From Boothiomyces macroporosus (taxonomy: Eukaryota; Chytridiomycota; Chytridiomycetes; Rhizophydiales; Terramycetaceae), in contig JADGKB010000102.1 in the NCBI GenBank assembly GCA_027604185.1, forward strand, positions 1 to 49,954: 49,954 nucleotides of DNA. Reading direction: 5' to 3'. Shown piece by piece: positions 1 through 48,602 of the stretch; positions within the stretch are counted from its first letter, which is position 1, and each line of letters opens with the position of its first letter. The position numbers and the translations under genes were made by a program. The notes beneath the pieces are model-generated. The model was not told the DNA's origin, ran no database searches, and saw only the letters and a list, made by a program, of their open reading frames with translations.

Positions 1-2264
1 AAGCTACTGCTACACTAATTCGGTCTTTACCTACTATGATCTTGTACGACGACAAAGGGCTTGAAATATTCGACAAGATTACCTACGACAAGGACTACTA
101 TCTCACTAATGCTGAAATTGAAGTCCTGCAAAACAATTCCGACGAATTGGTGGGAAAGTACGTCAAAGATGGCGATGTGCTTGTCGAGCTCGGTGCTGGG
201 TATGCTCGCTGCTAACTGTAGTGCCATGCGAAAGACCAAGTACATCCTGGACGCTATTACCAAGGCTGGCCGAAAGATCACTTACTATGCGGTAGATTTG
301 GCCGAAGCGTCGCTCAGACAGTCGCTCGAACCCCTGGCTGCCACCTATCCTTCAATCAAGTTTGTTGGGCTGTGGGGAACCTACCACGACTCGCTCAGCT
401 GGATCCAAAAGAACCAGCACAACGCACGCAAGCTTTTCCTGTGGTTGGGCTCGTCGATTGGCAACCTGACCAGAAAAGAAGGAGCAGACTTTTTGCTCAA
501 CGTGCGCAACACTGCAATGAGGGACGGCGACCTGTTCCTGTGTGGGATCGACAAGCGCAACTCGTTTGAAACGGTTTCGCTCGCTTACAACGACCGCAGC
601 GGCCTGACCAGAGATTTCGCAATGAACGGCTTGGTCAACATCAACAACATCTTCAAGTACACCGTGTTCGACCCTTCCAACTTTATGTATGTTTCGATCT
701 ACAACGAGGCCGATGGCAGACACGAGGCGTACTATGAATCCACCAAAGACCAGACTGTTGAATTCAGGGAAGAGAAGGTCTCTGTCCACTTGAAGAAGGG
801 CGAGCTGATTAACTTCGAGTATAGTTATAAATATTCACCAGATGAAGTATGCGAGCTTATACAAGGAGCCAAAATGTCTGATTTAGGCAAGTGGACTGAA
901 TCCAAGAACCTCTACAGTGTACATATGTACTTTGTATTTAATTTAGGTTTTATCGATCTCCAATCTATTTTGATACCAAAGTCGGTGTTGGTGAACAAAA
1001 GCTGCCCACAATTCAAGAGTGGAAAGAGTTGTGGAAAGCTAGCGATGCTATTACTACAGTAATTATTGATCCTTCTCGGTACATGAACAAACCCATCTCC
1101 CTAAGACATCCATATATCTTTTATCTTGGGCACTTGCCTGCTTTCCTTGATATTCAATTATCTAGGGCTGTAGGATCTGAGCCGACAAACAAATACTTTG
1201 CCGAAATTTTCGAAAGAGGAATTGACCCAATTATGGAAGACCCATCAAAATGCCATTCCCATTCTAAAGTTCCAACCGTTTGGCCAAAGGTCCAAGAAAT
1301 CTTGGATTTTACTGCTGGGGTACGAAATAGGCTGGAGTTGTTGCTCCAAGAGGGTAATTTGACAAAGAAACAGATCAGGGCAATGACTATGTGTTTCGAA
1401 CACGAGGCCTTGCATATGGAAGTAATTTCAACTTAATTGTAGACCCTTTTATACATGTTTATGCAAGACAAACCCATTTCAGACTTTTCCCTGTTCCCTG
1501 TTCCAATTTTCGAACCTTTGGCTGAAGAAATTACACCTGCTTCTTGGGTTAAAGTCAAGGGTGGTGACTTTAAGATGGGCTTGAATGATTTCGAATCAAA
1601 GGATAATGATCCTAATTCTCCTGCAGTAATGTTTGGGTGGGATTGTGAAGTCCCAGAAGTTTCTTCCTCTGTTAAACCCTTCGAAATCCAGCACCGTCCT
1701 GTTACAGTACGGGAATATTTAGATTTCCTTGTGGCGGTTAATTTCCAAGAGGATTTGGTACCTTCCTCATGGATTAAGGTTGATGGAGAGTATTTAGTAC
1801 GCTCCATTTATGGGCCAGTATCACTGAAACACACTGGATTGTGGCCGGCTGCCACTAGTCAAGTTCAGGCAATGGCATATGCAAAGCATCACAATTGTTC
1901 ACTCCCTACTGAAGAGCAATTGTCATTTATCAAAAACACAAGCAATTCCAGTTCATTAAACTACACACATTCTTTCAAAACCTTGCATCCTCAACCAGTG
2001 ATTCTAAAGTCAAATCAAGTTGAAAACATTGTCGGAAACGGGTGGGAATTGACAAGTACTGTGTTCTACCCGTTTGAAGGCTTCGAGCAAAGCAAGATTT
2101 ATCCTGGCTACTCTTCAGACTTTTACGATGATAAGCATTACGTTGTTCTTGGGGCATCTTGGGCTACCATTCCTCGTATTGCTCATCGCAAATCATTCAG
2201 AAATTGGTACCAGCCTGGCTACCCATATGTTTTCTCCAAGTTTAGACTTGTCCGCAACACTTAA
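1..2264 (+). CDS. egt1: Ergothioneine biosynthesis protein Egt1-like (5' partial)
   Basis: Bifunctional Egt1: an N-terminal SAM-dependent histidine methyltransferase (EgtD-like) joined to a C-terminal iron sulfoxide synthase (DinB-like plus FGE-sulfatase-like, EgtB). The upstream part lies outside the window; the frame is open from base 3. Exons are ..199, 222-926, 947-1421 and 1443-2264, with introns of 22, 20 and 21 nt. Splicing restores three family motifs: the SAM-binding ELGAGAMRKTKYIL, the linker YSVHMFYRSP, and the metal-site helix HEALHMETLLYM (HxxxHxE). The FGE-like end carries GNGWELTSTVFYPFEGF and closes with FRLVRNT, normal for the family. Roughly the first 820 bases are clearly richer in G+C and use different codons from the rest of the gene. 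The product should make hercynine from histidine and couple it to cysteine in the cytosol. Identity is very likely; intron borders follow from conservation. Confidence 0.93.
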
Positions 2265-2430
2265 TATATCATTTTTTCTCTTTTCACCCCAATGTAAAAC
2301 TTAAACTTACTCTTATCTCCTGCCAAACCTGAATCTTTGTTTTATCTTGAACTGTGTACCTGGCCGCTAGAACTAGCGTGCATTCATTTCATGTTATGAC
2401 GTATATCAATTTCTTTACACGCTCCCCATC

Positions 2431-5400
2431 ATGCCAGATAGACAGAACAGTGGCGATTTTCGTATTGACATGACTGGTATTAGAGGCAGGAAGAGATTTT
2501 CGATATTGGGGTTAGGCACCTCTGGAATGCTCGCAGAAACTAAAAAGAGCAGTCAAATTCAGTTTTCAACCTTTCTATCAGACACTATACGGCTGGATTA
2601 TATCTCTACTGTTCGAAAAACAATGATAGACGGCTTACTAGCTTGCTCCAATGTTACCATGGAAAAGGAAGAATACCATCCAAATTCCCCACAAACACTC
2701 CAAATAAAGCAAAAAATGGAATTCATTCAACTGGTTGCTCTTGAAGTGGAAAGCTGGCTTATTGAAAGAAACAAGAATCTAACAACTTACTTAAAGTCCA
2801 ACTTCAAAATAAAATGTAATTTGGTGACAGATATGGAGAACTTTCACTGGGTAATACTAAACCAGATAAACGAATACGACGAAGAAGTGAATTCTCAGCT
2901 GTGGGATAGATACGCCGTCAAATACGAAGGACAAACAGGAGATTATCTGGACGCAGATTATGAAATAACCAAAAAAATGAAAGTAAAGGCGATTAAATTC
3001 TTTACAGAAAAGTTTCTAGAGACGTTGAAGATATCATCTGGGAAGGATCTAATCAAAGCTCTGTATGCCGTTACAAAGTTTTCAACTGGACCCGATTTGC
3101 TGGATTACCTTTTACCAGACTTGATCAAGAAAGAAGAAAAGGAATTGACTAATGAAATAATACCAAAGTTTCTCTTATACTGCGCTACATCCAAGGATAA
3201 ATTTGTGATTCCTACTATGGAGGCTTTTCTAAACAGAACCAACGATCTGGTTACTACACAAGTAATTAATTCAGTTTTGGAATTCGCATCACACAATCTT
3301 GATTCCGACTGCGGTTGTACACTGCTATCTAGCCAAAAAGACAAAATTACCAAGGAAGGGTTGATATGTGCTTTCATGGTAAGTTCAATCAAAGGAAATG
3401 AACAGCTTGTTGCTCTACTTCAACTACAGGCCTCTGACTTTTTAACTGATTTAAATCCCAATGTGAACATCAGCTCCAAGCCTTGTACGGATGCCATTTC
3501 ATTTCAAAGCTTTTTCCCGCCGTTCATCTATGTATTCATGGCGCTAGCAACTGCAACTACCCACTCTAGGCAGAGTGTTATTGGAGAACTGATCTCATAT
3601 TATGAGCAAAACAACTTTGAAATTGATTTAGCAGATATCGGAATTCATGAAAACGCTCACAAAATGTTCATGGAGTATCTTTTCAACATGTCTTGTCGCT
3701 TAAATCATTCCAACGTCGTAATAGCATTAATTGAAAAGGAATGCTTTCCTGAAAACTTGGTACCTTCAATATATGACTCGGTGGAGCATGGCCATCAAAA
3801 GATTTTGCACTTGATTTTAGAGACACTACTTTTCCCCGACAAGTGTATAGAGACTGCTTCTGGAGCTGTACCGATTCTATTTCGTAAATCACAGGTGCTA
3901 AAATACCTTCCATTCATAGCAAACAGATTTCCGCAAGAGGTGTCGTGGTTTTTTGATGAAATCTCAAATATTCCTATCCCTAGTTGTGTGCCTGTAACAG
4001 AAGATAGAGACCCCTTTGTGCGATCTAGACTAGTAAAGGGTGTGAAACTTGGAGCTACTTCTTTAAAGACAGTGGTTAAGCCACCAGAGCACGCATCACC
4101 AAACGAAATATGGAATGATCTTCAATTCGAAGGCCAGCTTCGGAATGCGAGTTCAAAGAAAACGGATAATTTATATGAAAGCGAATCAGTAATTTGCATG
4201 ATCCCGCAGATATTAGTTACGGAGCCTGCTTTTAGAGAAACATGGCTCAATGATGGAACAAGGCAGACAAACTCTTTGATTCGACTGTTAAGCACTGGGG
4301 ACGAAAGTATTATCTTGTCGCCGGCAGTGCAATCCTTAATGGAATACCACTGGGCTTTTGGATACTTTTGGCTCAGGTTTTCTATACAATTTCTAAGTAT
4401 GATATTGTTCATCATATCTACCGCATCCTTGTACTTTTTAATTGCGGTAAAGAACAACAGCCCAAATGCCTATTCTAATTCTCCAATCTACGCATTGTCT
4501 GCTTTGACGCTGTTCTTTTCATTCATATTTGTTATTCAGGAAGCAAGACAGTTTGTCGATGATATGAATAACTATATACATTCAACCACGAACGTAATCG
4601 ACTTGTCAATTCTTATGCTTGTACTTTACACCATTGTATCTGATGTATTTCTAGGAGTTAGCGTGGAGCCCCTAATTATGGCACTGGTTATAGTATTTGC
4701 TTCCATGCGATTACTTCTCTATCTCCGTATCTTCCCGTCTGTCGGACCGGTAGTCAGAATTACCAGCTCAGCTCTCCTCAATGTTATTCCAATTTTAATC
4801 CCCATGCTGATATTAATCGTTGCCTACACGTCCGCATTCTATATTCTCTGTCAAAGTATTGTTGGCCCTACAACTATATTTACTAGTTTTTGGAAAAGTA
4901 TGCAGTTTACTTTAACCATGATGACTTTTGACTATTCGTAAGCTATACTTAATGCTAGCCTGTTGAACGATCAGGAACAAATATTTTCGATATTCTTTTG
5001 TCGTATAATGTTCCATGCCACTTTTCTAATTTGCTTCATCAATCTCATTGTAGCCTTGATGACAGTAAATGTTGCAGATGTCACCTCCAATATGCGCGCA
5101 GCATGGCTTGTTGAAATATCCGAATTGATGGTAGAATTGGAGCTATATTGGCCTTGGCCATTCAACTATCCTAAATGGATCAGGGAGGACCTGGCTGCAT
5201 ATAAATCTTCAAGCACCAATGTTATTGAAGACGGAGGAGCAGGGGAAGCAAGTTCCTACATTTCAAAGGAAAAGAGCGAAATCGACAACGAGATTGATAA
5301 TATTATTGTGGTTCTTTACACCGCGCCAAGAGATGTTGTAATCAAAAAGTCGTGGTGGAATGACTATCCTAAAATACTGCAAGCAGCACCTATTGGGCTA

Positions 5401-6513: not shown

Positions 6514-9500
6514 TCATTTTCCATCTTTATTGATTCTAATGGAACTGTCAATTAATCTTTGATTACCTTTACGTAGCTTTTTGAGCGCTGCTACTTCTTC
6601 TGCCGTTGACTCGTGTGTTTCAATTTCATCTCTTGATTTGGCAATACCGCTATCAAGTCTTGCGAGATCAATTTTCTTTTTCAATTGTTTCAAATCATTT
6701 TCAGTAAAATTCAATTCGTTTGTAAACATCATTGTGCGAATTTCTTCGGTTTTCTTGTTTTTCAATTCGAATTGCTCACTCTTTCGTTGGTTCTTTGCTT
6801 TGGATTTTGCAGATTTCCGTTTGAGCTTTCTGACAGCATCATAAGTGGTAGAGAGAACTGCAGCGAGGGCCAGTTTAGTAGAAGAGGCACTGCTGGAAGT
6901 TGTATCGCTGCTTGGTTCTAATCCGCTCGAAGAATGAACCAAGCGATTCTGCTCTTCAATCCAACGATGCAGTTCGCTGTTGTTGGATTTCTTTCTTTCA
7001 GGCAGAGTCTTTTCAGACCGCTGTTCTTTGTTGAACTTTTTAATGTTTTCCTGTAGATGCAAGAGTTTTTGATTTTGTTGAAGGTTTCTCTCTGTTCTTA
7101 CTTTTAATACCTCTGCTCTAAGTTTTGCATTTTCTTTCATAATAGCAGAAATGTTTGCATCCAACAAATCGTCTCCACTGGTAGATTCAACTTCTGGTAT
7201 TTCAATTCGTGGAATATTCAAACTTCTTCTGCGAGTGGTTTGCATTTCGTGAGCTGAGTTGCTGCTAAATTTTCTATTTCCTTTGGATTTCCCGTCTTGA
7301 TTTGGATTTGAATTTTTACCCAGCATTTTCAAAAATCCTTCCTTTGCATTAACCAGCATATCGTAGACAGATGCACGTGGTTTTGGGCGATCTTCTTCAA
7401 ATGTTACTGAAGACGCTCTTCGTGGTAATGCTTTGCCATATTTGGGAGAGACATTTGGAAATCGAAAATGCTGATTGTAAAGTGCATCTAGTTCATCCAC
7501 ATTAATAGAATTTCTCGGTATATAATAATTTTCCGCTGCAGATGGAATTCTTGAAAATGATGGAGATCTCTTGAAAGAAGGAACTCTTAACAGCGAAGGC
7601 TTTCTCAACAATGGAGGAGTTTCGACAGGCGGTTCCACGATATCGTGTATTCCTTTCCAGAAATTGATAAAAGTGTCTTGGTGGTGAACCATTTTTTCCA
7701 AAGGCAGGATTAAAGCGTCTGTTAGACAATCCTTTAAAGTTTTGGTATCCGTATGTTCTGTTGGTTTAAAGCTTTCAACGTGTCCATCTTTTTCGTTTTG
7801 AATAATCTTTAGCACATATGGGTCTTTTGGAGCATCAGTACCTTTTAGCAGAAAATCACGATCATCCTCATACTTCAATTCTAGACATAGATATAATGTA
7901 CGGCTTGACTTTTTTCTGTCGTGAACCAGTTTCTAACATTAGCATTAATTACCTGGACGTCTTTAATCAAATCTTGCTTGAAAGCGAGGGCTTTGGCAGT
8001 TGAATTGTGAAAATCACCCACGATTTTTGTCTGGTTACTCAATTCAGTCAATCGATTGTGAACGGATAGGATCGATTCTTTTTGCCCCTATCGTCAATTA
8101 AACCATACAGCTATTCGCTTTACACAGCCTTCTAGAGCTTTGGACGTTTCCAATAGCTCAGCTTCGATGGACTTTATATAATCCCTTCTGGTTTTAATGG
8201 CGTCAGCAATGCTGACAGCTCTCTGTTTTGTCCAACCATCTGTGTTAAATCCAACTTACCAAATGGCAAATTTTTCAATTTTGGGAGTAAGCCTTCCGCC
8301 TTTGCCAATAATGCTTTCAACACATCTTTATCCTTATCAATTGCCAATGAAATTTTTTCCCAGGATCCCTTAATTTCATTGAAGGCAGACTTTCCACTTT
8401 CTTCAAGCACAGGAATAATCACGCTCAACTTGGCCTTTTGTTGAAAATAATTTACCTTTGTCCATTCTGTACTGTCAAAGGCAGAAATCTCCTCATTGAA
8501 TTTAACTCTGTACTTTTCAATCATATTCAAGTGCTCAGTGTGTTCTTCTTGCTGTTCTTTAATATTGGAAAGCATCGATTTCAATGTGATGATGGTTGAT
8601 TGTTCTTCCTTGTTCCTGGTCTTGTCAGCTATCAAAGTCCCCAAAACTTCAGTGCATGCATCAAGATTGCATTGAATGTAACTCTCAACTTTTGACATTG
8701 AGAGCAGTAGATCTCTGGTGCTCAATATTGCCTCATCATCTTGCAGTTTCTTTACTTCATCGACAAGCTTACTGGCATCTTCCTTTAATTTTTCAAACTT
8801 TTTTTCGTCAAATACGTCGTTTGGCATTGGGCCAAGTTTTACATCCCTACAATTAATAAGAAATACACTGCGAATTGCTTGAGCAGTCCTTCAACTGTTG
8901 CTTGTCCTTCCGTACTTAATTTTCGTGAATGTTCTAAAACTTCTTGTAACGCCATGTGATTTGTGTTTGACATTATACCTTCCAAGACATCTGGGAATAG
9001 AGTTATTGTTGTTAGGATATCAGTAGCGTCAATTGGATTAACTAGGGCATCAGTTGGTCTTCTTAGCGGTGCTAAAAGCCGATGATCAAACGGAGTATGA
9101 TGAATTATTTCATGGTTGGCCGAATCCAAACACAAATGCGCAGTCGCCAGATTTTTCGCATATCCGGTAACCAAATCGAGCAAGTACCCTCCAATTTCTT
9201 GGGCATACCCCAAACTAGCAGTAATAAACTTTTTGGCAACATTCAGCCTGGTCAATCGTTCGGCTACAGCTCTATCATTCGACGTACTTGGAGCTGTATG
9301 AAAGTGAGCAATCGCTCCATACAAGTTATACTTTGCCTTCATGTGGAGGATAGCGCCTCTTGGGAATTTCTGTTTTAAAAGGGAGCAGTGCTCGTTGGTA
9401 TATCTATTTGCAACATCATACAGATCAGATACATAGATTGCAATGACAGCAGTTACAGCACTCATCTTTTTTTCTAATTTAATCAATCAATTTACCATCG

Positions 9501-10506
9501 GTAGCTTTTTCGTAAAAGCATTCAGCAGCTTGAGCAAGCATGAGGGTAATCATTGCAGACAGCGTAGTTTCGTGCAAATCTGAACAAGCGTCAAGATTCA
9601 CTTTTAATCTTTGAGTAAGGGAGTCTCGAATATAGGTTAGAATTCCAGCCGCTTTTTGGAAATTCGCCAATGCTCTCTTTTTACCATCTGGACTGGAGAG
9701 CCTCTCTTTTGCAGCAAGCTGAGAATAAATTGCTGCAATGTTGTATAATGTAGCTGCTTTTTCATACTGGATGCAATTTGTAGAAACTAAATTAGCAATA
9801 GTTACTTTGATCGCTAGGGTTCCATGATTCGTACCAGACAAACCCGATATTTATATTTCCAGTTTCAAAAGAAAACTTGTTTTCCAAATGCTGGAGCTGG
9901 GCAAAATAGCTGGGTTAACTAATATTACTTTGCAAGTCTATTAATACCGGCTGCTGATCTCTCTGGACATCCAGCATGAATTCTCAATTGATTCAAAGCA
10001 TACCATTGAGATTTTTGTGGCATGTTTGACAGCACCAAATGATTATCAAAAGTCTTGTTTTTCAAAGCTTCTTTAGTTTGTTGAATTTCAGGCGTGATTG
10101 AATCGACATAGTAATCATCTAATTTCAACTTTTCTTCGTGTTCCAGCAAGATTCGAAGTGTCTGTGCCGAGTCATCTGCGGTAGTTGAGAGTATATATGG
10201 CATCAACGCTTTTTCATAATCCAAAAAAGTGTATTGCTCTTGCTCATCAACCAAGTTGGGATTAGTTACAGCCAGTTTCAAGGTAGTGATAATTGATTTC
10301 CTTGCTTGGTTGCCGATTTTTCTTGCGTTTCGTTTTATCGGCAATGCAATAAATGTGGTCGCTTCTCCAGCGCCATCATTGTAGTCTGGTTCGTGATTGA
10401 ATGGAAGATCTGATGGGTTGATTGCTTCGTAAAGCTCTTTGAATGAATGGTGGACGTCGAACTGGAAATCCATTTCTTTCAAGTAGAAAATATTCGCGTC
10501 TTTCAT
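6514..10506 (-). CDS. BRO1/V-domain (ALIX/Bro1/Rim20-like) protein
   Basis: Eight exons on the minus strand: 10506-9929, 9909-9806, 9786-9496, 9473-8867, 8846-8260, 8239-8109, 8087-7953 and 7932-6514, separated by introns of 19, 19, 22, 20, 20, 21 and 20 nt. Spliced, they give one open frame of 1,283 residues. The N-terminus is a BRO1 domain: the start FIALPIKRN, then NYFAQLQHLENKFSFETG, the hallmark helix YEKAATLYNIAAIYSQLA, and MLAQAAECFYEKA. DVKLGPMPNDVFD marks the end of BRO1, followed by a helical V-like domain. The last ~450 residues are a Ser/Arg-rich, low-complexity tail with proline-rich patches (PPVETPPLLRKPS) and coiled coil. The family binds ESCRT-III and ubiquitin or signals in alkaline-pH responses. 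Which of Bro1, ALIX or Rim20 it matches cannot be decided here. The start at 10506 is the first ATG after an in-frame stop. Confidence 0.85.
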
Positions 10507-10662: not shown

Positions 10663-11257
10663 TTAGAGCTTTGCCTTTGAGTTTGGAACATCATTGGCGG
10701 TAATGTAATAAGCCATTTCAAATTCCTTTTGCTTGAACCCGCACTTTTCATAGAATGGAACATTCTTGTCGGAACAATCCAAAATGACTATGATTAGCAA
10801 TCATTACTCTTGTAGCAGCCAGTTTGTTCCCCAATGTATTTCAAAGTTTCGATTACTAACCAGCCCAAGTTCTTTCCGCGGTATTCTGAATGTGTAACAA
10901 TATCTTCAATGTGGCCAACCAGCCCATTATGATGAACAAATTTGCGTTCAACAAAGATTGTTCCTGCACCAACAATCACTTGCTTTACAGTATCTTCAAT
11001 TACGATGGTGAAGTATTCGTGATTATGTTTCTTGAGGTAGTTGTAGCGGTCTAATCAGTAATCGCCTACCTAAAAAGTCCTTCTTTGGCATGTTTCCAAC
11101 TGAGGTAAGCATTCCTAGGCATTTCAAGAAGCCTTGTGAGAGCGATCTTACCTTTTTCGTAGTCGGTAGGCGCCAATGGCCTGACAGCGAACCCAGGCTT
11201 CAAGGATTTAATAACAGCCGGAGAGATTAATTTTGAAGAGAACAATTGCTCACTCAT
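10663..11257 (-). CDS. gna1: Glucosamine-6-phosphate N-acetyltransferase
   Basis: GNAT-fold enzyme that acetylates glucosamine-6-phosphate with acetyl-CoA in the UDP-GlcNAc pathway, the precursor supply for chitin and glycans. Four exons (11257-11152, 11132-11070, 11050-10808, 10787-10663) and three introns of 19, 19 and 20 nt give 178 residues, a usual Gna1 length. Diagnostic stretches after splicing are RPLAPTDYEKGFL, RYNYLKKHNHEYF, VGAGTIFVERKFVH, GLVGHIEDIV, the acetyl-CoA loop YRGKNLGWLVIETL, and CYKIILDCSDKNVPFYEKCG. Without the first intron the exon reads KGKIALTRL and the frame fails downstream, so that intron is needed. Start chosen at the ATG at 11257 (MSEQLFSS). The BRO1 gene begins just downstream on the same strand. 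Confidence 0.93.
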
Positions 11258-11375: not shown

Positions 11376-12195
11376 ATGTCAGCTAGCAGCCCAAGTGCCA
11401 AGCTTTTATCTTCCAAATTTGAAAAGATGTCGACTCAAGTTGCTTCCAACACCCAGTCAACTCCAGTAGGAGAGGTAAAGAAAGATATGTGTGTTATGTG
11501 TCAAAAGGTGGTGTATCCTATGGACAAACTGACTGCGGATGACAAAGTACTTTTTGCTGATCCAGATTTTCCACAAGACATGCTTAAGGTGTGGGCATTG
11601 TAACAAGACTTTGCAGGTGCTTTTTAACTAATTCAGCTTGGTAACTATGCCGCATTGAACAATGTCTTTTATTGCAAAGTAAAATATTCCTTATATAGCC
11701 TCATTTCAAACAATTGTTTGCTGTCAAAGGAAACTACACTGACGGGTTCCAAAAAGCAGAAGCTGCCGCGCATGGCAGAACAGAATCCACCCTCTCTAAT
11801 TACTCTACATCTAACGAAAGAAAGGAGGAATCAAGTACCATCCAGCAGCTCAAGAACCAAATCAATGAAGAAGAGAGAGCTTCATCCATTGAACAATTAA
11901 AGAACCAATTTTCCAACAGTGAGGTAAAGACCGAAGAGAAATCAAAGATCCAGGTTGGACAGGACGAAAAGCCTTCCACTTCTATTCAGCAACTAAAAAG
12001 CCAGTTTTCTGAAGAGCAAAAACCACAAAAAGGAAACTCTGTTCTACTGAGCGTAAATTATTACTAAGTTAGATTCGCCAAGAAGAATTGGATCAGATGA
12101 AGATCAACATGGAATCGTTGCAAAGACAAATGGACCAACTAAAGACGGACATTGCCAACAAGGAACAAGAAATTGCCAAATTAAAGGAAGAATAA
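11376..12195 (+). CDS. Single LIM-domain protein with QLKxQF repeats
   Basis: Five exons (11376-11546, 11566-11616, 11637-11678, 11699-12052, 12073-12195) with introns of 19, 20, 20 and 20 nt, all phase 0, giving 246 residues. Splicing builds a complete LIM zinc finger with ligands C39, C42, H60, C63, C66, C69, C87 and H90, exactly the C-x2-C-x17-H-x2-C-x2-C-x2-C-x17-C-x2-H spacing. After it come three copies of a short motif, [ST]IxQLKxQ[FI], near IQQLKNQINEE, IEQLKNQFSNS and IQQLKSQFSEE, in a charged, Ser/Glu-rich linker. The protein ends in a ~40-residue coiled coil. LIM proteins of this type usually bind actin or cytoskeletal partners; that role is inferred. Nothing suggests a DNA-binding domain. 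Confidence 0.9.
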
Positions 12196-17833: not shown

Positions 17834-18925
17834 TTAGTCAAAGAGACCCATTCCAAAGTCGTCATCTTCCTCTTCTTCTTCTTCAGCAGCGGCAGCTGGG
17901 GCAGCAGCAGCAGCTGGAGCAGCTTCAACAGCAACAGCAGTTGGGTTAGCAATAGCATCTTTGATCTAAAGAATTAGTCCTGTTCAAATAGTTGCTCCAC
18001 TCATGAAAAAATTAGAGTGTACGGTTTTTAGAAATCATCAAGGTCAAACCAAAATGTTTTAATCCTTGTGGAGCACTAGCTATTTAAAATAGCGGGTATG
18101 TTACTTACTCTTTCAAGGGCATCAAAGGTGTAGTTTTCCAAAGTCATACCAACAGACAAAACGTTCTTGTATCCGTTAACAATCAAGTGTGGGACAGCAG
18201 CAACGGTTGGGTAGTTGATAGCAAGGGAAATGCAGGTGATTTGGCTGATTCCGTTAACGTATTCCTTGACCAAGTCTTCATCGGAAATGTCCAAAACGGA
18301 AGCATCAAACAAGTTTCCATTGTCAAAGACGGCAAGAATGGTCATACCGTAAGTGAAAGGAGAAATGTTGAGCATGTTAAGCAAGGTAGCTTCAGAAGCA
18401 CCAACCTTAGTACCAGCCTTGATAATATCAACATCGTTGATGATTTCAATGGTACCACGGGAAATCTTGGTTGGGACACCAAGAGCTTGGAAGAAAGAGG
18501 TTTTACCTGGTTCCATACCAGTGTTACCGGCTGGAATGGTGACATTGTCTGGAGCAAGAGCACCAGCCTTTGCAGGAGCCTTGACACGGTTGGACAAGAT
18601 GGCAGTCTTGGTGTCCTTCAAGTCACCCTTGGTGAAGATGAAACCAATGTTTCCTTTGATGGTGGTCAAGAGCTTTTCAAAGTGTGGGTTGGAGTTCAAT
18701 CCGTTTCTCAAAGCACGGCGAACCATGGTGTTTTTACCTTGAATTAACCAATCATTTACCCATCAATACGACAGAGTTTCCTCTCAAGCTTTGACGGATT
18801 TGGTGCATTTGGTTGGAACCGACATTGTCAACGTTGACAATGAAGACAGTCTTGTATTCGTCCAAAAGACTGTAGAGTTTAGCGAAATAAGCTTCCTTTT
18901 TGATACGACCTTCTCCCTTTGACAT
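17834..18925 (-). CDS. rpp0: 60S acidic ribosomal protein P0 (uL10)
   Basis: Stalk-base protein of the large ribosomal subunit that anchors P1/P2. Three exons: 18925-18760, 18737-18109 and 17965-17834, totalling 308 residues. The first intron is 22 nt and the second is 143 nt. The first splice restores [15 protein letters not shown], the second joins TFDALER to [10 protein letters not shown]. The start [18 protein letters not shown] is canonical. The tail is an Ala-rich hinge, then an acidic stretch and the terminal [10 protein letters not shown], which binds elongation factors. Codon choice is strongly biased to C/T-ending optimal codons (GTC, TTC, GGT), unlike neighbouring genes, as expected for high expression. 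An AG lies directly before the ATG, so a 22-nt 5'UTR intron is also possible. Confidence 0.97.
17966..18108 (-). other. Exceptionally long intron in the P0 gene
   Basis: This 143-nt GT-AG intron is about seven times longer than any other intron placed in the window. It starts GTAAGTAAC and ends near ACTAATTCTTTAG, a normal branch-to-AG spacing. Inside it, an 8-bp perfect inverted repeat (TGCTCCAC at 18075-18068 on the sense strand and GTGGAGCA at 18000-17993) could form a stem that loops out ~67 nt and brings the splice sites closer. Confidence 0.85.
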
Positions 18926-21143: not shown

Positions 21144-21615
21144 ATATTCAACGAATAGTTTCTGTACGGACCAGCGGTTTCCAAATGCTGAATTAAAGCA
21201 ATGTTACCTCTGAAAACTTTGCGCTTTGTCCTTGGAATGTAGTTGGCATGTCATGGATTGTTGGCTGTTGCGATCCGTAGGTATTTGCAGTGGTAGAAAA
21301 CATTGGATGTTGTTTCTTTACATTGTACTTCCAAAGGTCTTGTTAGGAATAAATACCTGGCTCTTCGAATCTCCTTGGGAGCGGACCCTTTGTTCGGTAT
21401 ACATCTGAAGTTCTTACCTTGCTGCTCTCTTCTTTGGCTGGTTCAATAGTTTGAGTGGATTCTTTAGGTTTGTGTTCCTGGTTCAGTTGTTTGATTGAAG
21501 CTTCTAGATCTTCAATGTGCTTTTCCAAGCAGTGAATCTCCTTTTTGATTTGCGGGACTCTCAAGACATTTGTTCTAACTGGTTCTAATTCTAGAGGGAA
21601 TGCTGCAAAGCTCAT
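21140..21615 (-). CDS. PIERCE-like microtubule inner protein (flagellar)
   Basis: Three exons (21615-21357, 21338-21208, 21187-21140) with introns of 18 and 20 nt, giving 145 residues. The N-terminal ~65 residues form a coiled-coil extension (QIKKEIHCLEKHIEDLEAS). The rest follows the family pattern of 'piercer of microtubule wall' proteins (PIERCE1/2): RTSDVYRTKGPLPRRFEEP, then HPMFSTTANTYGSQQPTIHDMP, a Phe-x-x-x-x-x-x-FSE stretch and the terminal GPYRNYSLNI. These proteins bridge tubulin walls inside doublet microtubules of motile cilia. This implies that the organism makes a flagellated stage. The coiled-coil start is not typical and may be lineage-specific. Identification rests on motif memory, not a search. 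Confidence 0.75.
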
Positions 21616-34221: not shown

Positions 34222-34262
34222 CGGCACAATAACTGCTCATCACTACCAGAAAATTAGAAAGA

Positions 34263-35739: not shown

Positions 35740-36067
35740 ATGTCTAATCAGCTCTATATCAACAATTCGGCTAAAGAATTCTATGGTACTATCAATTTTT
35801 CAAGTAATCACAGAAAATCGGGTGTTTCATTTTTCTCGGACCTTCTGTTTGGTTTGCAGTCACAAAATCCTGAAATCAATTGAAATAAAAATCGATCCCA
35901 TCTGCCGCAAGAACCATTTAAGGCAGCAATTCAAGCAAGTTTTTGTTGATCGGACAGTTCCCTCTTTCACTGCGAATCAGTTTTCTTTGGTGTTTTATCG
36001 CAAATTAATAGTGACCACAAGCCGTTTTTCAAAAGGCAAAAGAAATACAGGGTATAAAAACAACTGA
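35740..36067 (+). CDS. Hypothetical small protein (two exons, tentative)
   Basis: Exon 1 from the ATG at 35740 (MSNQLYINNSAKEFY) and exon 2 at 35805-36067 join across a possible 19-nt GT-AG intron (35786-35804), giving ~102 residues. The second exon is open on its own for 94 residues and is basic, with CLVC. The intron lacks the usual TAAY branch motif, so the model is weak. The 3' end overlaps the TATA box of the next gene. No family recognised. Confidence 0.28.
36053..36059 (+). promoter_or_regulatory. TATA box of the 36083 gene
   Basis: TATAAAA begins 30 bp before the ATG at 36083. Confidence 0.4.
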
Positions 36068-36082
36068 ATGAATCAAAAGTAA

Positions 36083-36748: not shown

Positions 36749-36823
36749 AGATAGCCTTTATTTGACTAAACTAGTCATTTATCAAATTGCAATGATAAAG
36801 AAACAAAATGATTATAAAAATGT

Positions 36824-41357: not shown

Positions 41358-42817
41358 ATGGAAAACAAAATCCCAGTTTTTGAAAAATCAGCTGTAGATG
41401 AATTCTATCCAGTTGATAGAATCAAACGACTAAACAATCAATTCGAACAGTCGTTCAAATCCAGCCCAACTCACTACTGCAGATCACCAGTAATCATTAC
41501 TAATTCAGGGTCGTCTAAATATCATTGGAGAGCATATCGATTACTCTGGATTCTCTGTTCTTCCTATGGCAATAGATAGAGACTGCTTGATGGCGTTTTC
41601 ATTTCAAAAGAGCGACAAGCCAACAATCAAAATCGCAAATACAAACCCAAAGTATAAGAGTAGCGAGTTTGGCACGGATTTTACTATTGATTTGAAGGCG
41701 CATGATTGGACCACTTACTTTAAATGCGGATTTAAAGGCGTGTTGGAAACGTACAACGTGCACAGTGTTAGTGTGCAAGTTGTTGGTAATTCCTTTTGAT
41801 TCTAGTTGATGGAACTGTTCCTACTGGGAGCGGATTATCATCCTCCAGTGCTTTTGTCTGTTGCTCAGCTTTGTTGACCAGTTATATTCACAATTTATCT
41901 CCAACAAAAGGAGAATTAACTCAAATCGCGATAAAAAGTGAGCGCTATTGTGGTGTTGAAAGTGGTGGCATGGACCAGTCAATCTCTATTGTAGCAAACA
42001 AAACCCCACTGTTGATTGATTTTGAACCAAAGTTGAATGCTACTCTGGTAGATTTCAAATTAAACGATCTTGTCTTTGTTATTGCTAATACTCTAGTTGT
42101 ATCCGATAAAGCAGTTACTGCTCCTATTCATTACAACCTTAGAGTAGTAGAGTGCAGGTTGATTGTTGCGCTATTGGGATTCTATTTGAAGAAAGAGTAC
42201 AAGAATCTATGGGATTTTGTAGAAAAAGAAAAGGATTCATCCGATAGTAAGTTGCATTGACCGTAGACGTTGATAAATTTGAAAAGCCTCTAGCGTTAGT
42301 CAAGCAACACCTTTCCGGCGATTATACTCGCCAAGATATTGCCAAAATCTTGGATATTGACGTTTCCAAAGTGGAAGAAGAATATATCAAGCCAATTCAA
42401 ATCAGAGCCACCGAGTTTAAGCTTTTGAAAAGGGCCGTGCACATACTAACAGAAGCTCAGAGGGTTTACAAATTTGTCAAGGCTTGCCAAGTAGGTGATC
42501 CTGTGGTACTAGGGAATTTGATGGTAAACTCTTTTTTTATACAGAATGAATCACAAGCTAGCTGCAGAGATTACTTTGAATGTAGCTGCTATGAAATTGA
42601 TAAAGTATGTGAATTAGCCGCAAAGAATGGGTCGCTAGGTTCACGATTGACTGGTGCTGGATGGGGAGGATGCACCGTTCATTTGATAAGAAAGGACAAC
42701 TTGAGCTCTTTTATGGATGGAATGAAGGAATATTACTCTGAAATTGGATACGAAGGCGACCTTGGCCAAGTGTTATTCAGCAGTGTTCCCTCAATTGGGG
42801 CAATTGTCTTTCAATAA
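41358..42817 (+). CDS. gal1: Galactokinase
   Basis: GHMP kinase that phosphorylates galactose to galactose-1-phosphate in the Leloir pathway. Four exons (41358-41489, 41509-41785, 41806-42246, 42267-42817) with introns of 19, 20 and 20 nt give 466 residues. Splicing restores the galactokinase signature GRLNIIGEHIDYSGFSVLP, the ATP loop VDGTVPTGSGLSSSSAF, the SGGMDQS motif, and the C-terminal GSRLTGAGWGGCTVHL. The start MENKIPVFEKSAVDEFYP has no strong competitor. A separate ATG-initiated frame at 41147-41383 overlaps the start in another frame; it has a repeated AATTTGAATCGTGTCT and may be an upstream ORF in the leader. Confidence 0.94.
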
Positions 42818-43081: not shown

Positions 43082-43880
43082 ATGTCCACCAAAATTTCAT
43101 GGAACGAAGGAGGATCAAATGTAAGAAGAATTAATTGTAGGTAATAGTCACAGGCGATTTTGATAACTGGCAAAAATCCATCGTCTGTCAGCATATGGAT
43201 GGTGAACACTCTGCGACAATTACCGTATCCTCCTTTCCCATTGTATTTAAATTCATAGTCGATGGTGACTGGACTCTATCAAAAAAGTACGAACGAGTTC
43301 AAGTACTTGTAATTAATCTTAGGATCACCAAGGCAATTGGAACAATATCATAAGGGTGCCTGATATACTTGAAAAAATGAACCAATTGGAAACCAAAGTA
43401 GCCAGTCAGAAATCCTTACTGGAATACTTGGAACAAGAGCACAAGAAAGAGCTGGGATCTTTAAACAAGTCAATTGTCGAATATGAAGAAATTATTTCTA
43501 GGCTGATCTCTTCCAACAGCGTATCATTGGAAACGCTGGAGGAATTTGCTATTGACAGTGAAGGCAATTCATTGCAGTCCACCAGCCAAAAGTCCCTCAA
43601 GAGCTCATCAGACCGTATTGACTCTGCGGTCGACCTGTCACTAAACGAGATCAAACTAGAAGCAGAGTACTACCCAGATGAAATGTACTCTACCACTGAA
43701 GAAGATGATAACCTAGATCAACTTCAAAACTTGTATGAAAGTTTATCCCAAAAGCGTTTCCAATTGATTGAAATGGCAAACGCTTACACTATTCAGATGC
43801 AAACTATTTTGGACTATTTTGAACAAGCTGATTTGGCTCATCATTTACCTGCTGTTGATTTTGACGTTGAATTGCTCTAG
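43082..43880 (+). CDS. CBM48 (AMPK-beta type) domain protein with coiled coil
   Basis: Three exons (43082-43120, 43141-43302, 43323-43880) with two 20-nt introns, both phase 0, giving 252 residues. The N-terminal ~80 residues form an AMPK1_CBM/CBM48 glycogen-binding domain: SNVIVTGDFDNWQKS, the core KFIVDGDWTLS, and DHQGNWNNIIRVPD, the family's terminal Asp-Asn loop. Trp in DNW and DGDW are the starch/glycogen contacts. The rest is helical with a long coiled coil (MNQLETKVASQKSLLEYLEQ), acidic Ser-rich linker and a second helix pair. Similar to Crp1/Mdg1-type proteins in layout, but without kinase or SNF1-binding parts visible. Likely cytosolic, role in glycogen or signalling unknown. Confidence 0.85.
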
Positions 43881-44255: not shown

Positions 44256-45717
44256 ATGACTATCCGACAATTTCGAAAAGTAGGAAAGGAAGGATACAAA
44301 TTACGACCATTCGATTTAGTATTGTTCAAGGGAAATGATCCGGTCGGGAACTTGATTCAAAAGATTGAGAAAAAGTATGTTGATCCCAGTGACGCCAATG
44401 TTGAAGGAACGTTATGGACGCATGTGGGAATTATAGTAGACAAATCCGTGTTACCGCTCGATTGCATGGAACCTGATAAACTGTATCTGTATGAATCAGT
44501 ATTTTCAGGGTCAGTGTTGGGCTACACCTACTGCAAAGTTGGACCAGTGGACCATCCATTTGTAGATGGGAAAAAGAATCATTCAGGACCTCAAATCAGA
44601 CCATTCGCTGATGCTATCATGGAAGCAGCAGCGGACATTGGAATCAGTACCCTTACAGACGCAGAACGAGAAAAGATTTATGCTAGAGGGCTACCTAAAA
44701 TCCAACAAGAGTTTTTGGAGTTGTACAACAAGTACAAGGACTACGGATATCCATATAGCATTGTCCCGCAGTTGGCTTCAGCTTCCGATTCTCTGTTGTC
44801 CTTGTTCAACAAGACTAAACAGATTGCCAAAGATTTTGGCAAAAGGGTAGAGAATACTGTCAAAGAAAAGCTAAACAAAGATATTGGAGGTGGGTCAGGG
44901 AAAAAGACTGTGTTTTGCTCGCAATTCGCTGCCAAAATATATGCGCATTTTGGAGTGACTGGTTTTGAAAACTCGGAAGGTTTATTTGGTTTAATTGTAG
45001 CTGGGAAATTCACTCCAATCGAACTCGATTCAGCTCCAGCATTCAAAACGGATGATTACTATGCCAAGATTGGTGGAATGCATATGCTTACTCCCGATGG
45101 GTTGACATTGCAAAACGTAGGAAGCCCATCAATGATTAAATCATATGAACAGCCATTGACTGAAAAAATATGGGAAGAGCAAGTAAAGCAAAGAATTCAA
45201 GAGTATAATCACTTTACGGAGGCAGGGGAACCAATGCCTCCGTTATTTTGGAAGTATACGGAAAAGAATGATATTCCTAAAGAAGCAATAGTACTCGGAC
45301 ATGATGCTGATGGGAGCAATTTGTATGGTAACATTCTCTAATTCAGCCGCCAGAGCCTTTTTCAAAAATGGTGTTCATGTAGGTAAAGCAGGACCAGCAA
45401 TTCTAGGAGCGTCAATTCCCTGGGGAGAAAAAGAAAACCTTGTTGAAAAGTATGAAATTTTGTGTGGAGATCAGGATAAAGTCAAGTGGGTACAAGTTGA
45501 GAACGAACTGAATTTCTACCTTGAACATCCATTCGTTTTTGGAGGTAGCAGTGACGGAAGACCATTATTTGTTGCTCAGGCTGAACATGAAAATAGTCTG
45601 GTAGTTGGAAAAGCTGGGCCAGGGCATACTGGTGGTGCTTATATTCCCATCAACGGAAAAGAAATCTCAAAGCCAACTTATAGAGTGCTGGTCGAAGCTT
45701 CTCCACATTGTCAATAA
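44256..45717 (+). CDS. Papain-like (YiiX/NlpC-type) hydrolase fused to DM9 repeats
   Basis: Two exons (44256-45327, 45347-45717) joined by a 19-nt intron give 480 residues from the ATG at 44256. The first ~270 residues look like a permuted NlpC/P60 (YiiX/DUF830-like) cysteine-peptidase fold: LRPFDLVLFKG, WTHVGIIV with the likely catalytic His, and VFCSQFAAKIY with the likely catalytic Cys, in the order seen for the permuted group. The C-terminal ~130 residues carry DM9 repeats: LGHDADGSNLYAARAFFKNG, HVGKAGPAILGASIPWG, and again FGGSSDGRPLFVAQAEHE...VVGKAGPGHTGGAYIP. DM9 domains in other organisms bind sugars or are induced by pathogens (established). Upstream exon status is uncertain (see 43881-44255). 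No signal peptide, so cytosolic. Confidence 0.75.
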
Positions 45718-46113: not shown

Positions 46114-47319
46114 ATGCTCACTCTCTTATTTCAATTAGCTGAAGCCAGAAACTGGAAACACAATCCTGCAAACAACGAAAGGGGTGAAATCAAGGTCTCT
46201 TTCACGACCAAATTGCAGAATTCTGTTACTTCAACTGGAGCCTTGAATGCGAACCAACAGGCTTATACTCTGCAAGGAAATGTTGGTGTGGGAACTCCAC
46301 CACAATTCTTTAATGTGTTGTTTGATACCGGCTCTGATTTGTTTTGGATTACAAACAAAGACTGCATTGGTGAATGCGGAAATAATATGTTTGACTCAAT
46401 GGCTAGTTCGACTTTTAAAAAAAATGGATCTGATACTTTTATTTCATACGGTGATGGCACAACAGTTGACTGCGCTCTTGCCCAAGATACCGTTCAAATT
46501 GGAGGTACCGTAATGAACAATATTCCGATTTGCTTGGCTTACGACGTTTCCACTCAAACTGGTATCACTGATGGGTTAATTGGACTTGCTGTTCCTGGAG
46601 ATAAGCCATCTGGTGCTGATATTTTTTCAGCCCTTACACAACAAGCTGCCAGTGGCAAAAACCTTGCTTCATTCTGGTATGACAGATCTGAAAATTTGGA
46701 CCCTAATGGAAAGGCTGGTGAGATTATGGTACTTTATTTCTAATCATAGTTTGGCGGAATCGATTCGACTAGATATACACCGCCAATTAGTTGGATTCAA
46801 GTTGATTCCAAAGAGAATTGGTTCACTGATCTAGAATCTATTTCATACAATGGCCAAATTGTGTATTCCCTTCAAACCTCTATTCTATTTGATACTGGAA
46901 CCACAGTTGCTATTGTTCCATATGAAGTATTTGCTCAACTTAACCAAACCATGAATATGGATGAAAATAATTTGGTGGATTGTTCCAAAGCAAAGTCCTT
47001 CCCGCCAATCACTTTTACTTGGAAGGACGCTTCTGTAACTTTGACTTGGGACCAACAAATTATTGTCGATATGCCAACAAAATCGTGTATGTCAATCTTT
47101 TATCCTGGACGAGGTAGCACTGACGATCCATTAATTCTTGGTGCACAGTTTTTGAGAAACTTTTACTCTATTTTTGATTATGGAAGTAACTCTACTGGAG
47201 CAAGAGTCGGGCTAGCAAAACCATCTGATTCATTCACCATGACTTTGCCAAACTCTAGTGGTGCTGTCAGGTATTCAATGCTTGCTGCTTGTATTTCCAT
47301 TTTTGCTATTTTAATATAG
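46114..47319 (+). CDS. Pepsin-like aspartic protease, probably GPI-anchored (copy 1)
   Basis: Two exons (46114-46728, 46750-47319) around a 21-nt intron give 394 residues. MLTLLFQLAEARNW is a very short, moderately hydrophobic start, then a short propeptide and VGVGTPPQFFNVLFDTGSDLFW with catalytic D71. The Tyr flap region is YGDGTTVDC and the second active site is LFDTGTT (D253). GAQFLRNFYSIFDYG is the usual C-lobe end. The last ~15 residues (MLAACISIFAILI) are hydrophobic after NSSGA, a typical GPI-attachment signal. The protein should be exported to the surface or wall and digest proteins at acid pH. Copy 2 lies tail-to-tail 68 bp away. Confidence 0.93.
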
Positions 47320-47387
47320 AAATACAATTATTTTATTTAAACGATTCTTTTCAATGTAAAATCAAGACGAATCAAAATTATATATAT

Positions 47388-48602
47388 TTATAGAATCATG
47401 GTAGAGACAAGCACAGCATAGAACACTGCCAATGAATAAGCAGCTGCTGAACCTGGAACAGTAACAGTAAAAGAGTCTGAAGGTTGGGCTAATCCAATCC
47501 TTGCATTTCCAGTGTTGTTTCCATAGTCAAAGACTGTGTAAAAGTTGCGCAAGAACTGAGCACCCAAAATCATCACATCAGTTGGACCAGCAGGTTGGAA
47601 TATTGTGGAGCATGTGTTGCTGTTCAAATCAATAATGACTTGCTGTTGCCATGTGAGGTTGATTACAGTTGAGCCCCATGTAAAAGTCATTGTAGGAAGA
47701 CTCTTGACAACAGAGCACGGCATATTTCCATTTTTATCTACATTCATTATTTGATTGAGTTGGCTGTAAACTTTGGATGGAATGATGCAGTTTGTGGTGC
47801 CAGTATCCAATAGAATTGATACAGAGGTAGCCAAGACTTGATTATTTACAGCTATAGAATCCAAATTCGTGAACCAATTCTGCTGAGTTGAATCTACAGG
47901 AATATACTGGAAAGGAGGAGTAAATCGAGAAGTATCCACCCCACCGAACGTAATTTCTCCAGCTTTGACTGAAGGGTCAGAGAAATTGATTGTTTCTGAT
48001 CTGTCATACCAAAAGCCAGCAATAGCTTGGCCAGTTGTTGCTTGCTGAGTTATTGAGGCAAACAAATCAGCACCAGAGGGTGAATCGCCAGGAACAGCGA
48101 GTCCTAATATTAAATGGATGTTACCAATAATCCCATCTGTAGATCCTGTAGTGGTTTGAATGAAATTTGCTAGACAGATTGAAATGTTTTTAAAGTTGTG
48201 CCCGCCAATTTGGATACTATCGCTGGCAAGTGTACATTGCACTTGAGTTCCATCACCATACGTGATTCCAGTGGTTTTAGTTCCTGCCACAAAGGTAGAG
48301 CTGGCGGCTGAATTAAACTGATTCTGCCCCACACATTCCTGTGCTTTGCAGTTGTTGTTTCTAATCCAAAACAAGTCTGAACCAGAGTCAAACAAGACAG
48401 ACATAAATTGAGGGGGAGTTCCGATCCCAACATTTCCAGTAAGTGTGTATGCTACTTGGTTTGCATTCAAGGCACCGGTGGAAGTGACAGAGTTGGTGAG
48501 TTTGGTTCTAAAGACAGCTTTGATTTCGCCTTTGTCGTTCAGAGCAGGGTTCACTTTGAAATTCCTGGCAGCGACAAGGGAAATGAGAAAGTAAGAGTGC
48601 AT
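47388..48602 (-). CDS. Pepsin-like aspartic protease, probably GPI-anchored (copy 2)
   Basis: Two exons (48602-48125, 48103-47388) around a 21-nt intron give 397 residues. The ATG at 48602 (MHSYFLISLVAARNF) aligns with the start of copy 1; an in-frame ATG at 48659 would add 19 residues that copy 1 lacks. Active sites are LFDSGSDLFW, where the usual DTG is DSG, and LLDTGTT; the flap is YGDGTQVQC. The tail (AAYSLAVFYAVLVSTMIL) is hydrophobic, as in GPI signals. The intron 48104-48124 has a length divisible by three and no stop, so the unspliced ORF also reads through with NIHLI inserted before GLAVPG. Copy 1 has an intron-free TDGLIGLAVPG here, which supports splicing. Confidence 0.92.
   Translation of the reverse strand: MHSYFLISLVAARNFKVNPALNDKGEIKAVFRTKLTNSVTSTGALNANQVAYTLTGNVGIGTPPQFMSVLFDSGSDLFWIRNNNCKAQECVGQNQFNSAASSTFVAGTKTTGITYGDGTQVQCTLASDSIQIGGHNFKNISICLANFIQTTTGSTDGIIGNIHLILGLAVPGDSPSGADLFASITQQATTGQAIAGFWYDRSETINFSDPSVKAGEITFGGVDTSRFTPPFQYIPVDSTQQNWFTNLDSIAVNNQVLATSVSILLDTGTTNCIIPSKVYSQLNQIMNVDKNGNMPCSVVKSLPTMTFTWGSTVINLTWQQQVIIDLNSNTCSTIFQPAGPTDVMILGAQFLRNFYTVFDYGNNTGNARIGLAQPSDSFTVTVPGSAAAYSLAVFYAVLVSTMIL

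What the first reader, a model, noticed from the sequence alone, without database searches (positions are those of the whole stretch)
200..48124. Genome-wide ultra-short introns of 18-22 nt
About 29 introns can be placed by restoring family motifs in at least 12 genes (for example 200-221, 9910-9928, 11547-11565, 21339-21356, 42247-42266, 48104-48124). All but one are 18-22 nt long, mode 20. Such lengths are known from nucleomorphs of chlorarachniophytes and from some ciliates; I know of no chytrid-type fungus described with this size class. If real across the genome, its spliceosome must work at close to the lower physical limit.
Basis: partly seen in the sequence, partly recalled or inferred. 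Interest (0 to 1): 0.92.

Follow-up and report, generated by a model that had tools for sequence, protein, structure and literature searches.

The report
20-nucleotide introns across a fungal genome
This chytrid fungus appears to carry many thousands of introns only 19-22 letters long, close to the shortest that cells are known to splice, while keeping ordinary splicing factors, which makes it a promising system for asking how small an intron can be.

Summary
The window is a contig of Boothiomyces macroporosus (Chytridiomycota, Rhizophydiales). I place 34 introns in 13 window genes: 33 of 18-22 nt (mode 20) and one of 143 nt; all six examples are among them. Twenty 10-kb stretches from other contigs each hold 4-28 introns of 19-22 nt. 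A gene model asking only for GT...AG with a flat length prior of 10-150 nt peaks sharply at 19-22 nt; eight decoy dinucleotide pairs do not (128 versus 8-22 in the 18-22 bin). A motif-trained model gives 326 introns in 250 kb against 53-91 with scrambled motifs, so roughly 14,000-20,000 per genome by extrapolation. The typical intron is GTA..., a yTAAY-like branch site with its A at +14 to +16, and AG 4-7 nt later. Genes for U1-like, U2 and U6 RNAs, SF1, both U2AF subunits, Slu7 and Prp18 are present, so ordinary spliceosomal splicing is inferred; no RNA reads were available. Lengths of 15-21 nt are known in nucleomorphs, heterotrich ciliates and mikrocytids. My searches of open-licence papers showed no report in fungi.

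The parts
200..221 (+). 22-nt intron, Egt1-like gene (histidine methyltransferase + FGE domains)
   Evidence: gene model; Pfam
927..946 (+). 20-nt intron, Egt1-like gene
1422..1442 (+). 21-nt intron, Egt1-like gene
4938..4958 (+). 21-nt intron, ion-channel-like gene (name by eye, not tested)
9910..9928 (-). 19-nt intron, BRO1-domain gene
   Evidence: continuous in Terramyces protein P0122
9787..9805 (-). 19-nt intron, BRO1-domain gene; same-length read-through inferred in the Boothiomyces sp. JEL0866 protein
9474..9495 (-). 22-nt intron, BRO1-domain gene
8847..8866 (-). 20-nt intron, BRO1-domain gene
   Evidence: spliced in public model P0123
8435..8455 (-). 21-nt intron, BRO1-domain gene; public model P0123 reads it as KVNYFQQ
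8240..8259 (-). 20-nt intron, BRO1-domain gene
   Evidence: spliced in P0123
8088..8108 (-). 21-nt intron, BRO1-domain gene
   Evidence: spliced in P0123
7933..7952 (-). 20-nt intron, BRO1-domain gene
   Evidence: spliced in P0123
11133..11151 (-). 19-nt intron, glucosamine-6-phosphate acetyltransferase gene
11051..11069 (-). 19-nt intron, glucosamine-6-phosphate acetyltransferase gene
10788..10807 (-). 20-nt intron, glucosamine-6-phosphate acetyltransferase gene
11547..11565 (+).
   Evidence: restores LIM ligand spacing, (by eye)
11617..11636 (+). 20-nt intron, LIM-domain gene
11679..11698 (+). 20-nt intron, LIM-domain gene
12053..12072 (+). 20-nt intron, LIM-domain gene
18738..18759 (-). 22-nt intron, ribosomal protein P0 gene
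17966..18108 (-). 143-nt intron (the exception), ribosomal protein P0 gene; GTAAGT...CTAAT..TTTAG
   Evidence: restores an acidic tail ending [16 protein letters not shown]; also picked
21339..21356 (-). 18-nt intron, PIERCE1/2-domain gene
   Evidence: Pfam PF14892
21188..21207 (-). 20-nt intron, PIERCE1/2-domain gene
22730..22750 (+). 21-nt intron, D-2-hydroxyacid dehydrogenase gene
41490..41508 (+). 19-nt intron, galactokinase gene
   Evidence: spliced in public model P0001
41786..41805 (+). 20-nt intron, galactokinase gene
   Evidence: spliced in P0001
42247..42266 (+). 20-nt intron, galactokinase gene
   Evidence: homologue has one extra residue beside it; spliced in P0001
42524..42544 (+). 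21-nt intron, galactokinase gene; public model P0001 reads it as VNSFFIQ, absent from the four other proteins fetched
43121..43140 (+). 20-nt intron, AMPK-CBM-domain gene
43303..43322 (+). 20-nt intron, AMPK-CBM-domain gene
44980..45000 (+). 21-nt intron, DM9-repeat gene
   Evidence: no homologue check
45328..45346 (+). 19-nt intron, DM9-repeat gene
   Evidence: no homologue check
46729..46749 (+). 21-nt intron, aspartyl protease gene
48104..48124 (-). 21-nt intron, second aspartyl-protease-like gene (similarity to 46114-47319 by eye)

Best explanation
The segments are ordinary major-class (U2-type) spliceosomal introns shrunk to little more than their recognition elements, throughout the nuclear genome of Boothiomyces macroporosus. 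SHOWN in sequence, for the typical intron: exon ...AAG | GTAA; a few T-rich bases; a yTAAY-like branch site with its A at +14 to +16; AG 4-7 nt further on. The total of 19-22 nt is the sum of two nearly fixed distances. SHOWN: one U1-like, one U6 and two U2 genes with canonical-looking recognition stretches, plus SF1, U2AF65, U2AF35, Slu7 and Prp18 genes whose own models contain such introns. INFERRED: U1 and then U6 engage the GTAA end, U5 the exon AAG, and U2 the branch site. With the branch A at +14 the U2 duplex would begin near +9, leaving about two free bases after the U6-paired +6, so the introns would sit at the floor set by packing two snRNA duplexes side by side. The branch-to-AG gap leaves no room for a polypyrimidine tract there, so U2AF must act differently on these introns or mainly serve the rare long ones. 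Deletion bias down to this floor, with selection against shorter introns, would explain the narrow lengths.
For: Length peak without any motif assumption, and no peak in decoys. Motif census peak only at 19-22 nt. The branch-site and 5' profile appears in introns chosen with no branch-site model. Motif-trained model 326 against 53-91 in controls. All 20 other contigs sampled hold such introns. Branch A at +14 to +16 in 287 of 320, and 4-7 nt to the final G in 289 of 320 (best A per intron); 273 and 274 of 319 in a wider search. 14 of 16 junctions checked against solved-structure homologues have no gap within three columns; at the other two the homologue has 1 and 2 extra residues, which is not what a retained intron would look like. 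All 8 BRO1-gene junctions are continuous in the Terramyces protein and all 3 Slu7 junctions in its Terramyces homologue. The public B. macroporosus models splice 3 of 4 galactokinase and 4 of 5 covered BRO1 introns. Splicing parts.
Against: No RNA data. The U5 search found nothing, but its control genomes rang nowhere either; U4 was not searched. The U1 hit is 68.8 bits against a cut-off of 69.5. The U2AF65 hit in the raw genome is below its family cut-off (230.7 against 310.3 bits, read across introns), though the spliced protein matches solved U2AF65 well. Taken at face value, the controls allow 16-28% false calls; in the window two model introns were wrong by inspection. Some introns predicted in splicing-factor genes look weak, for example two of five in the incomplete U2AF35 model and the first in Prp18 (by eye). 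In the JEL0866 BRO1 protein the stretch between the first two junctions does not align (read as mis-annotation there). The role of each snRNA and of U2AF on these introns is inferred, not tested.
Confidence: 0.95

Rival explanations
1. The apparent introns are sequencing or assembly errors (indels) or pseudogene lesions that a model mends by skipping about 20 nt.
For: The assembly's quality is unknown, and no reads were available.
Against: Errors would not share GT..AG, a branch motif and a fixed length. Several of the genes are conserved housekeeping genes, including ribosomal protein P0, Slu7 and U2AF65. A 19-nt read-through at the same place is inferred in the JEL0866 protein.
Confidence: 0.01
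2. The segments are bypassed in translation or removed by a non-spliceosomal route rather than spliced.
For: Other routes exist for unusual introns; I tested none.
Against: The elements fit canonical U1, U2 and U6 recognition stretches, and the genome keeps the splicing genes I searched for apart from U5.
Confidence: 0.02
3. Ultra-short introns are only one class; a comparable number of longer introns was missed, so the genome median is far above 25 nt.
For: One convincing 143-nt intron; long-intron candidates exceed controls by 7-9 in 250 kb. UTR introns and introns over 600 nt were not sought.
Against: 22 long candidates against 13-15 in five controls, beside 327 short ones; lengths above 22 nt are fewer with GT-AG than with any of the eight decoy pairs.
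Confidence: 0.03
4. The same introns, but kept short by selection for translation-dependent quality control, as reported for Paramecium (recalled), rather than by a packing floor.
For: A UPF1 zinc-domain gene is present. 21-nt introns carry an in-frame stop in the true phase in 57 of 79 (0.72) against 0.57 in the other phases.
Against: With strong motifs only (n = 56) the difference shrinks to 0.68 against 0.60, and 19- and 20-nt introns show the reverse; my gene finder itself favours stop-bearing 3n introns. No depletion of 21 nt is evident.
Confidence: 0.1

Closest known systems
Bigelowiella natans (chlorarachniophyte) nucleomorph introns
   Same: Same length band, 18-21 nt, narrow, many introns per genome (PMC10245619 section 7; 19 nt in PMC2483917); 5' site largely GT(A) in both.
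   Different: A relict endosymbiont nucleus with more than 800 introns in about 300 genes. Irimia and Roy report no branch-point signature there (PMC2483917 section 15); here a branch motif is clear and the genome is a 15-Mb fungal one.
Mikrocytid introns (Mikrocytos mackini)
   Same: Narrow length class with conserved sequence.
   Different: 16-17 nt, 224 introns, reduced spliceosome of 17-19 proteins, intracellular parasite; here 19-22 nt, an estimated 14,000-20,000 introns, and all five splicing proteins I searched for were present.
Heterotrich ciliate introns (Stentor, Blepharisma; genus names recalled)
   Same: Ultra-short introns of 15-16 nt in free-living eukaryotes (cited).
   Different: Shorter; ciliates, not fungi. 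Branch-site layout not compared here.
Fungal and microsporidian introns
   Same: GT-AG introns; density 1.7 per kb of coding sequence in my gene models lies within the fungal range of 0 to 4.5 per kb (PMC8476143).
   Different: Means or medians quoted in the passages I read run from 35.8 nt (Encephalitozoon cuniculi) and 45 nt up to 469 nt; none near 20 nt.

Membership tests
U2-type spliceosomal introns | GT...AG ends with a branch-site A upstream of the AG | tested here: met
   GTA 289 of 321, AG required by the model; TRAY in 254 of 321; the branch signal is seen also without a branch model (204 introns)
U2-type spliceosomal introns | Genome encodes the matching snRNAs with canonical recognition stretches | tested here: inconclusive
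   U2 (2) and U6 (1) over cut-off, U1 just below it; recognition stretches canonical by eye against recalled motifs; U5 not found, control silent; U4 not searched
U2-type spliceosomal introns | Removed from mRNA via a lariat | not testable with these tools
   no RNA data
Ultra-short (under 25 nt) genome-wide intron class | Narrow length peak below 25 nt holding nearly all introns | tested here: met
   coding regions only
Ultra-short introns as characterised by Irimia and Roy 2008 | No branch-point signature | tested here: not met
   at fixed distance from the AG, columns -9 to -7 of the intron carry 0.83, 0.57 and 1.02 bits without any branch alignment; higher when aligned on the best A, which inflates it
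Ultra-short introns as characterised by Irimia and Roy 2008 | 5' site largely restricted to GT(A) | tested here: met
   +3 has 1.41 bits, +4 to +6 only 0.44, 0.19 and 0.39
Mikrocytid-type reduction | Reduced spliceosome accompanying short introns | tested here: inconclusive
   SF1, U2AF65, U2AF35, Slu7, Prp18 all found, which speaks against it; the full protein set was not surveyed
Paramecium-type quality-control constraint (recalled) | 3n introns depleted or enriched in in-frame stops | tested here: inconclusive

The most novel reading that the evidence does not exclude
Boothiomyces, and perhaps its family Terramycetaceae, runs a full, U2AF-containing fungal spliceosome almost entirely on introns that are just abutting snRNA docking sites, a 'two-ruler' architecture of branch A at +14 to +16 and AG 4-7 nt later. 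U2AF tract binding is dispensable for these introns and reserved for rare long introns such as the 143-nt one in the P0 gene, giving a naturally two-class splicing system within the fungi.
Probability: 0.3. Interest if true: 0.88.

Novelty: new variant of a known kind. Interest (0 to 1): 0.78.

Why it matters
The shortest-intron genomes named in the papers I read are nucleomorphs, ciliates, dicyemids or parasites. A chytrid fungus (saprotroph, recalled) with an estimated 14,000-20,000 introns of about 20 nt and every splicing protein I looked for would separate 'very short introns' from 'reduced machinery'. It also runs against one half of a published generalisation, that short-intron lineages lose their branch-point signal (PMC2483917, section 15), while agreeing with the other half, a 5' site reduced to GTA. 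The spacing rules give direct tests of the minimum 5'-site-to-branch distance and of whether U2AF needs a polypyrimidine tract. In practice, the two public gene models of this species that I examined each read one intron as exon, and one lacks the first 327 residues of my model, so proteomes of this group may need re-annotation.

Tried and rejected
The first gene-model settings (intron penalty too heavy) found no introns at all on the first 10 kb, because codon bias here is weak, about 0.15 nats per codon; settings were relaxed and judged against decoys. A small RNA in the 143-nt intron was considered; Rfam gave nothing credible (no hit, and only U2, U6 and one tRNA). A 3n/in-frame-stop constraint was tested and left open. 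A class of longer introns was sought and found rare. My own model's 11589-11607 and 18080-18104 were rejected by inspection. The Prp18 alignment was not entered in the junction count; 7 of the 23 short introns of the six genes counted there were not entered because they fall outside the alignments printed and used. The genome paper for this species (Amses et al. 2022, attribution recalled) is not held, so what it says about introns is unknown to me. DNA of relatives was not available; inference on them uses their proteins only.

Papers: PMC10245619 (passages and section 7), PMC2483917 (abstract, passages, section 15), PMC8476143 (passages, section 14), and passages only of PMC5364385, PMC11649378, PMC7181583, PMC13391722, PMC12075339; PMC10470594 was searched for 'intron' with no match. 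All other papers were seen only in search listings, which were capped.
Full report
WHAT WAS CHECKED. The window is contig C102 of a 15.2-Mb, 216-contig assembly. A galactokinase predicted from it matches, at 98%, a protein of Boothiomyces macroporosus on a contig of exactly 49,954 bases, and a second gene matches HK103_000359 at 99% on a contig of that length. The species is Chytridiomycota, Rhizophydiales, Terramycetaceae.

IS IT THERE? All six named segments are GT...AG on the coding strand. To avoid choosing introns by eye I took 20 stretches of 10 kb, one from each of 20 other contigs, and worked on 249,954 bases. A census of GTA..TAAY-N2-4-AG gives 67, 79, 53 and 20 hits at 19, 20, 21 and 22 nt; an order-3 Markov model expects 12.2, 9.2, 11.6 and 13.0, and no other length from 13 to 60 nt exceeds 20 hits. 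Without the window the counts are 63, 70, 46 and 15. A semi-Markov gene model that knows codon usage only, requires just GT and AG, and gives all lengths 10-150 the same prior, picks 33, 52, 31 and 11 introns at 19-22 nt; in the 18-22 bin it has 128, against 8-22 for eight decoy dinucleotide pairs. A motif-trained model gives 326 introns over 141 gene models (with and without introns): 85, 121, 81, 26 and 7 at 19-23 nt and 6 others. Four scrambled-motif controls give 53, 61, 79 and 91, so 16-28% of the calls might be false. Every one of the 20 stretches holds introns of 19-22 nt, 4 to 28 each; the window, with 34 raw calls in 50 kb, is poorer than the 292 in the other 200 kb. Net density of 0.9-1.3 per kb extrapolates to roughly 14,000-20,000 introns per genome. 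Of 135 gene models with score at least 10, 101 have one or more introns; the mean is 2.4 per gene and 1.7 per kb of coding sequence, false calls included.

HOMOLOGY. Of 16 junctions that fall inside alignments to solved-structure homologues (galactokinase, glucosamine-6-phosphate acetyltransferase, ribosomal protein P0, BRO1 domain, U2AF65, Slu7), 14 have no gap within three columns; at two the homologue has one or two extra residues. Retention would add six or seven residues here or shift the frame. Seven further short introns of these genes were not entered, being outside the alignments used. All 8 junctions of the BRO1-domain gene are continuous in Terramyces sp. JEL0728; in Boothiomyces sp. 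JEL0866 the six later ones are, while the stretch between the first two does not align. All 3 of Slu7 are continuous in its Terramyces homologue. In the two public B. macroporosus models examined, 7 of 9 covered introns are spliced. They read the 21-nt intron 42524-42544 as VNSFFIQ, absent from the four other proteins fetched, and the 21-nt intron 8435-8455 as KVNYFQQ, absent from the three others aligned; the BRO1 model also lacks the first 327 residues of mine. The JEL0866 protein contains VKNTNIV exactly where read-through of the 19-nt intron 9787-9805 would give VTIANLV here. I infer a 19-nt intron at the same place in that species, from protein letters only.

ANATOMY. Among 321 introns of 18-23 nt, GTA begins 289; the commonest hexamers are GTAATT (48) and GTAAAT (28); the ends are TAG 215, CAG 67, AAG 33, GAG 6. 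In the 204 introns of 18-23 nt from a run that knew only GT, AG and lengths 17-24, the same profile appears without any motif model: exon -1 is G in 48%, +3 A in 86%, +4 A in 60%, +5 T in 43% and G in 17%, and a T-then-A ridge stands in the bases just upstream of the 3' end (68% T, then 77% A two bases on). Taking the best branch-like A per intron, it lies at +14 (130), +15 (130) or +16 (27) in 287 of 320 and 4-7 nt before the final G in 289 of 320; a wider search with a threshold gives 273 and 274 of 319. Base frequencies around that A (T at -2 in 98%, A at -1 in 78%, Y at +1 in 93%) are inflated by choosing the best match.

MACHINERY. U2 has two genes over cut-off, U6 one, U1 one at 68.8 bits against 69.5. 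U6 carries ACAGAGA, U2 GTGTAGTA and U1 begins ATACTTACCTG (comparison with canonical motifs is recalled). U2AF65 (below family cut-off when read across introns; spliced protein matched), SF1, U2AF35, Slu7, Prp18, a Methyltransf_10 gene (METTL16 belongs to that family, recalled, but the family also rang in 5 of 14 control genomes) and UPF1 are present. The models of the U2AF65, U2AF35, SF1, Slu7 and Prp18 genes themselves contain ultra-short introns, though a few of these look weak and the U2AF35 model is incomplete. U5 did not ring, but neither did any control. U4 was not searched.

EXCEPTIONS. One intron in the window is long: 17966-18108, 143 nt, GTAAGT...CTAAT..TTTAG. Removing it gives an acidic tail ending [10 protein letters not shown], as expected for P0 (recalled), and picked it independently. 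Across 250 kb, long candidates number 22 against 13-15 in five shifted controls, beside 327 short introns: true long introns are about 2-3% by excess, 6% if every candidate were real. UTRs and lengths over 600 nt were not examined.

HOW IT LIKELY WORKS. Shown: the layout above. Inferred from known spliceosome chemistry (recalled): U1/U6 cover about +1 to +6, and U2 pairs around the branch from about -5 to +1. With the branch A at +14, the two duplexes are about two bases apart, so the length floor is set by packing them next to each other. The 4-7 nt branch-to-AG gap excludes a polypyrimidine tract there; U2AF may read the T-rich linker upstream of the branch, act without a tract, or serve mainly long introns. 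This is untested.

COMPARISON AND NOVELTY. Lengths of 18-21 nt (chlorarachniophyte nucleomorph), 15-16 nt (heterotrich ciliates) and 16-17 nt (mikrocytids) are known (PMC10245619, section 7). Irimia and Roy state that short-intron lineages show weak constraint, 5' sites largely GT(A) and no branch signature (PMC2483917, section 15); this genome fits the 5' part and not the branch part. A survey of 644 fungal genomes describes fungal length diversity without mentioning such introns in the section read (PMC8476143, section 14). My literature searches showed no report of this size class in a fungus; they cover open-licence PMC papers only, several listings were capped, and the genome paper is not held. 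I therefore file it as a new variant of a known kind.

Noticed in passing
G000:C76:70924-71272 against window 500-848: A 99% identical copy of part of the Egt1-like gene lies near the end of another contig; possibly an uncollapsed haplotype or a recent duplicate.
   Followed up: no
window 17966-18108: The one long intron of the window sits in the ribosomal protein P0 gene and contains a predicted stem (GTGCTCCAC...GTGGAGC); it may host a small RNA or be regulatory, but Rfam shows nothing credible.
   Followed up: partly
window 19402-38470: A run of apparently intronless genes for membrane proteins with similar C-terminal parts (19402, 23695, 26194, 28236, 31449, 36824); SPRY was confirmed by Pfam only for 26194-28170, the others by eye. 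The window is poorer in introns than the other stretches pooled.
   Followed up: partly
L023, L024 and L026 around 1440-1740: The two U2 genes and the U1 gene share TATAAATA shortly upstream and ATTAAAATGAAA just downstream, a candidate shared snRNA promoter and 3' box (by eye).
   Followed up: no
introns genome-wide, +5 position: T is commoner than G at +5 although U1 looks canonical, while +4 A is 60%; a Methyltransf_10 gene is present, which might fit a U6-methylation-dependent 5' site class (recalled idea).
   Followed up: partly
window 42524-42544 and 8435-8455: Two public protein models of this species each read a 21-nt intron lacking an in-frame stop as seven extra residues.
   Followed up: yes
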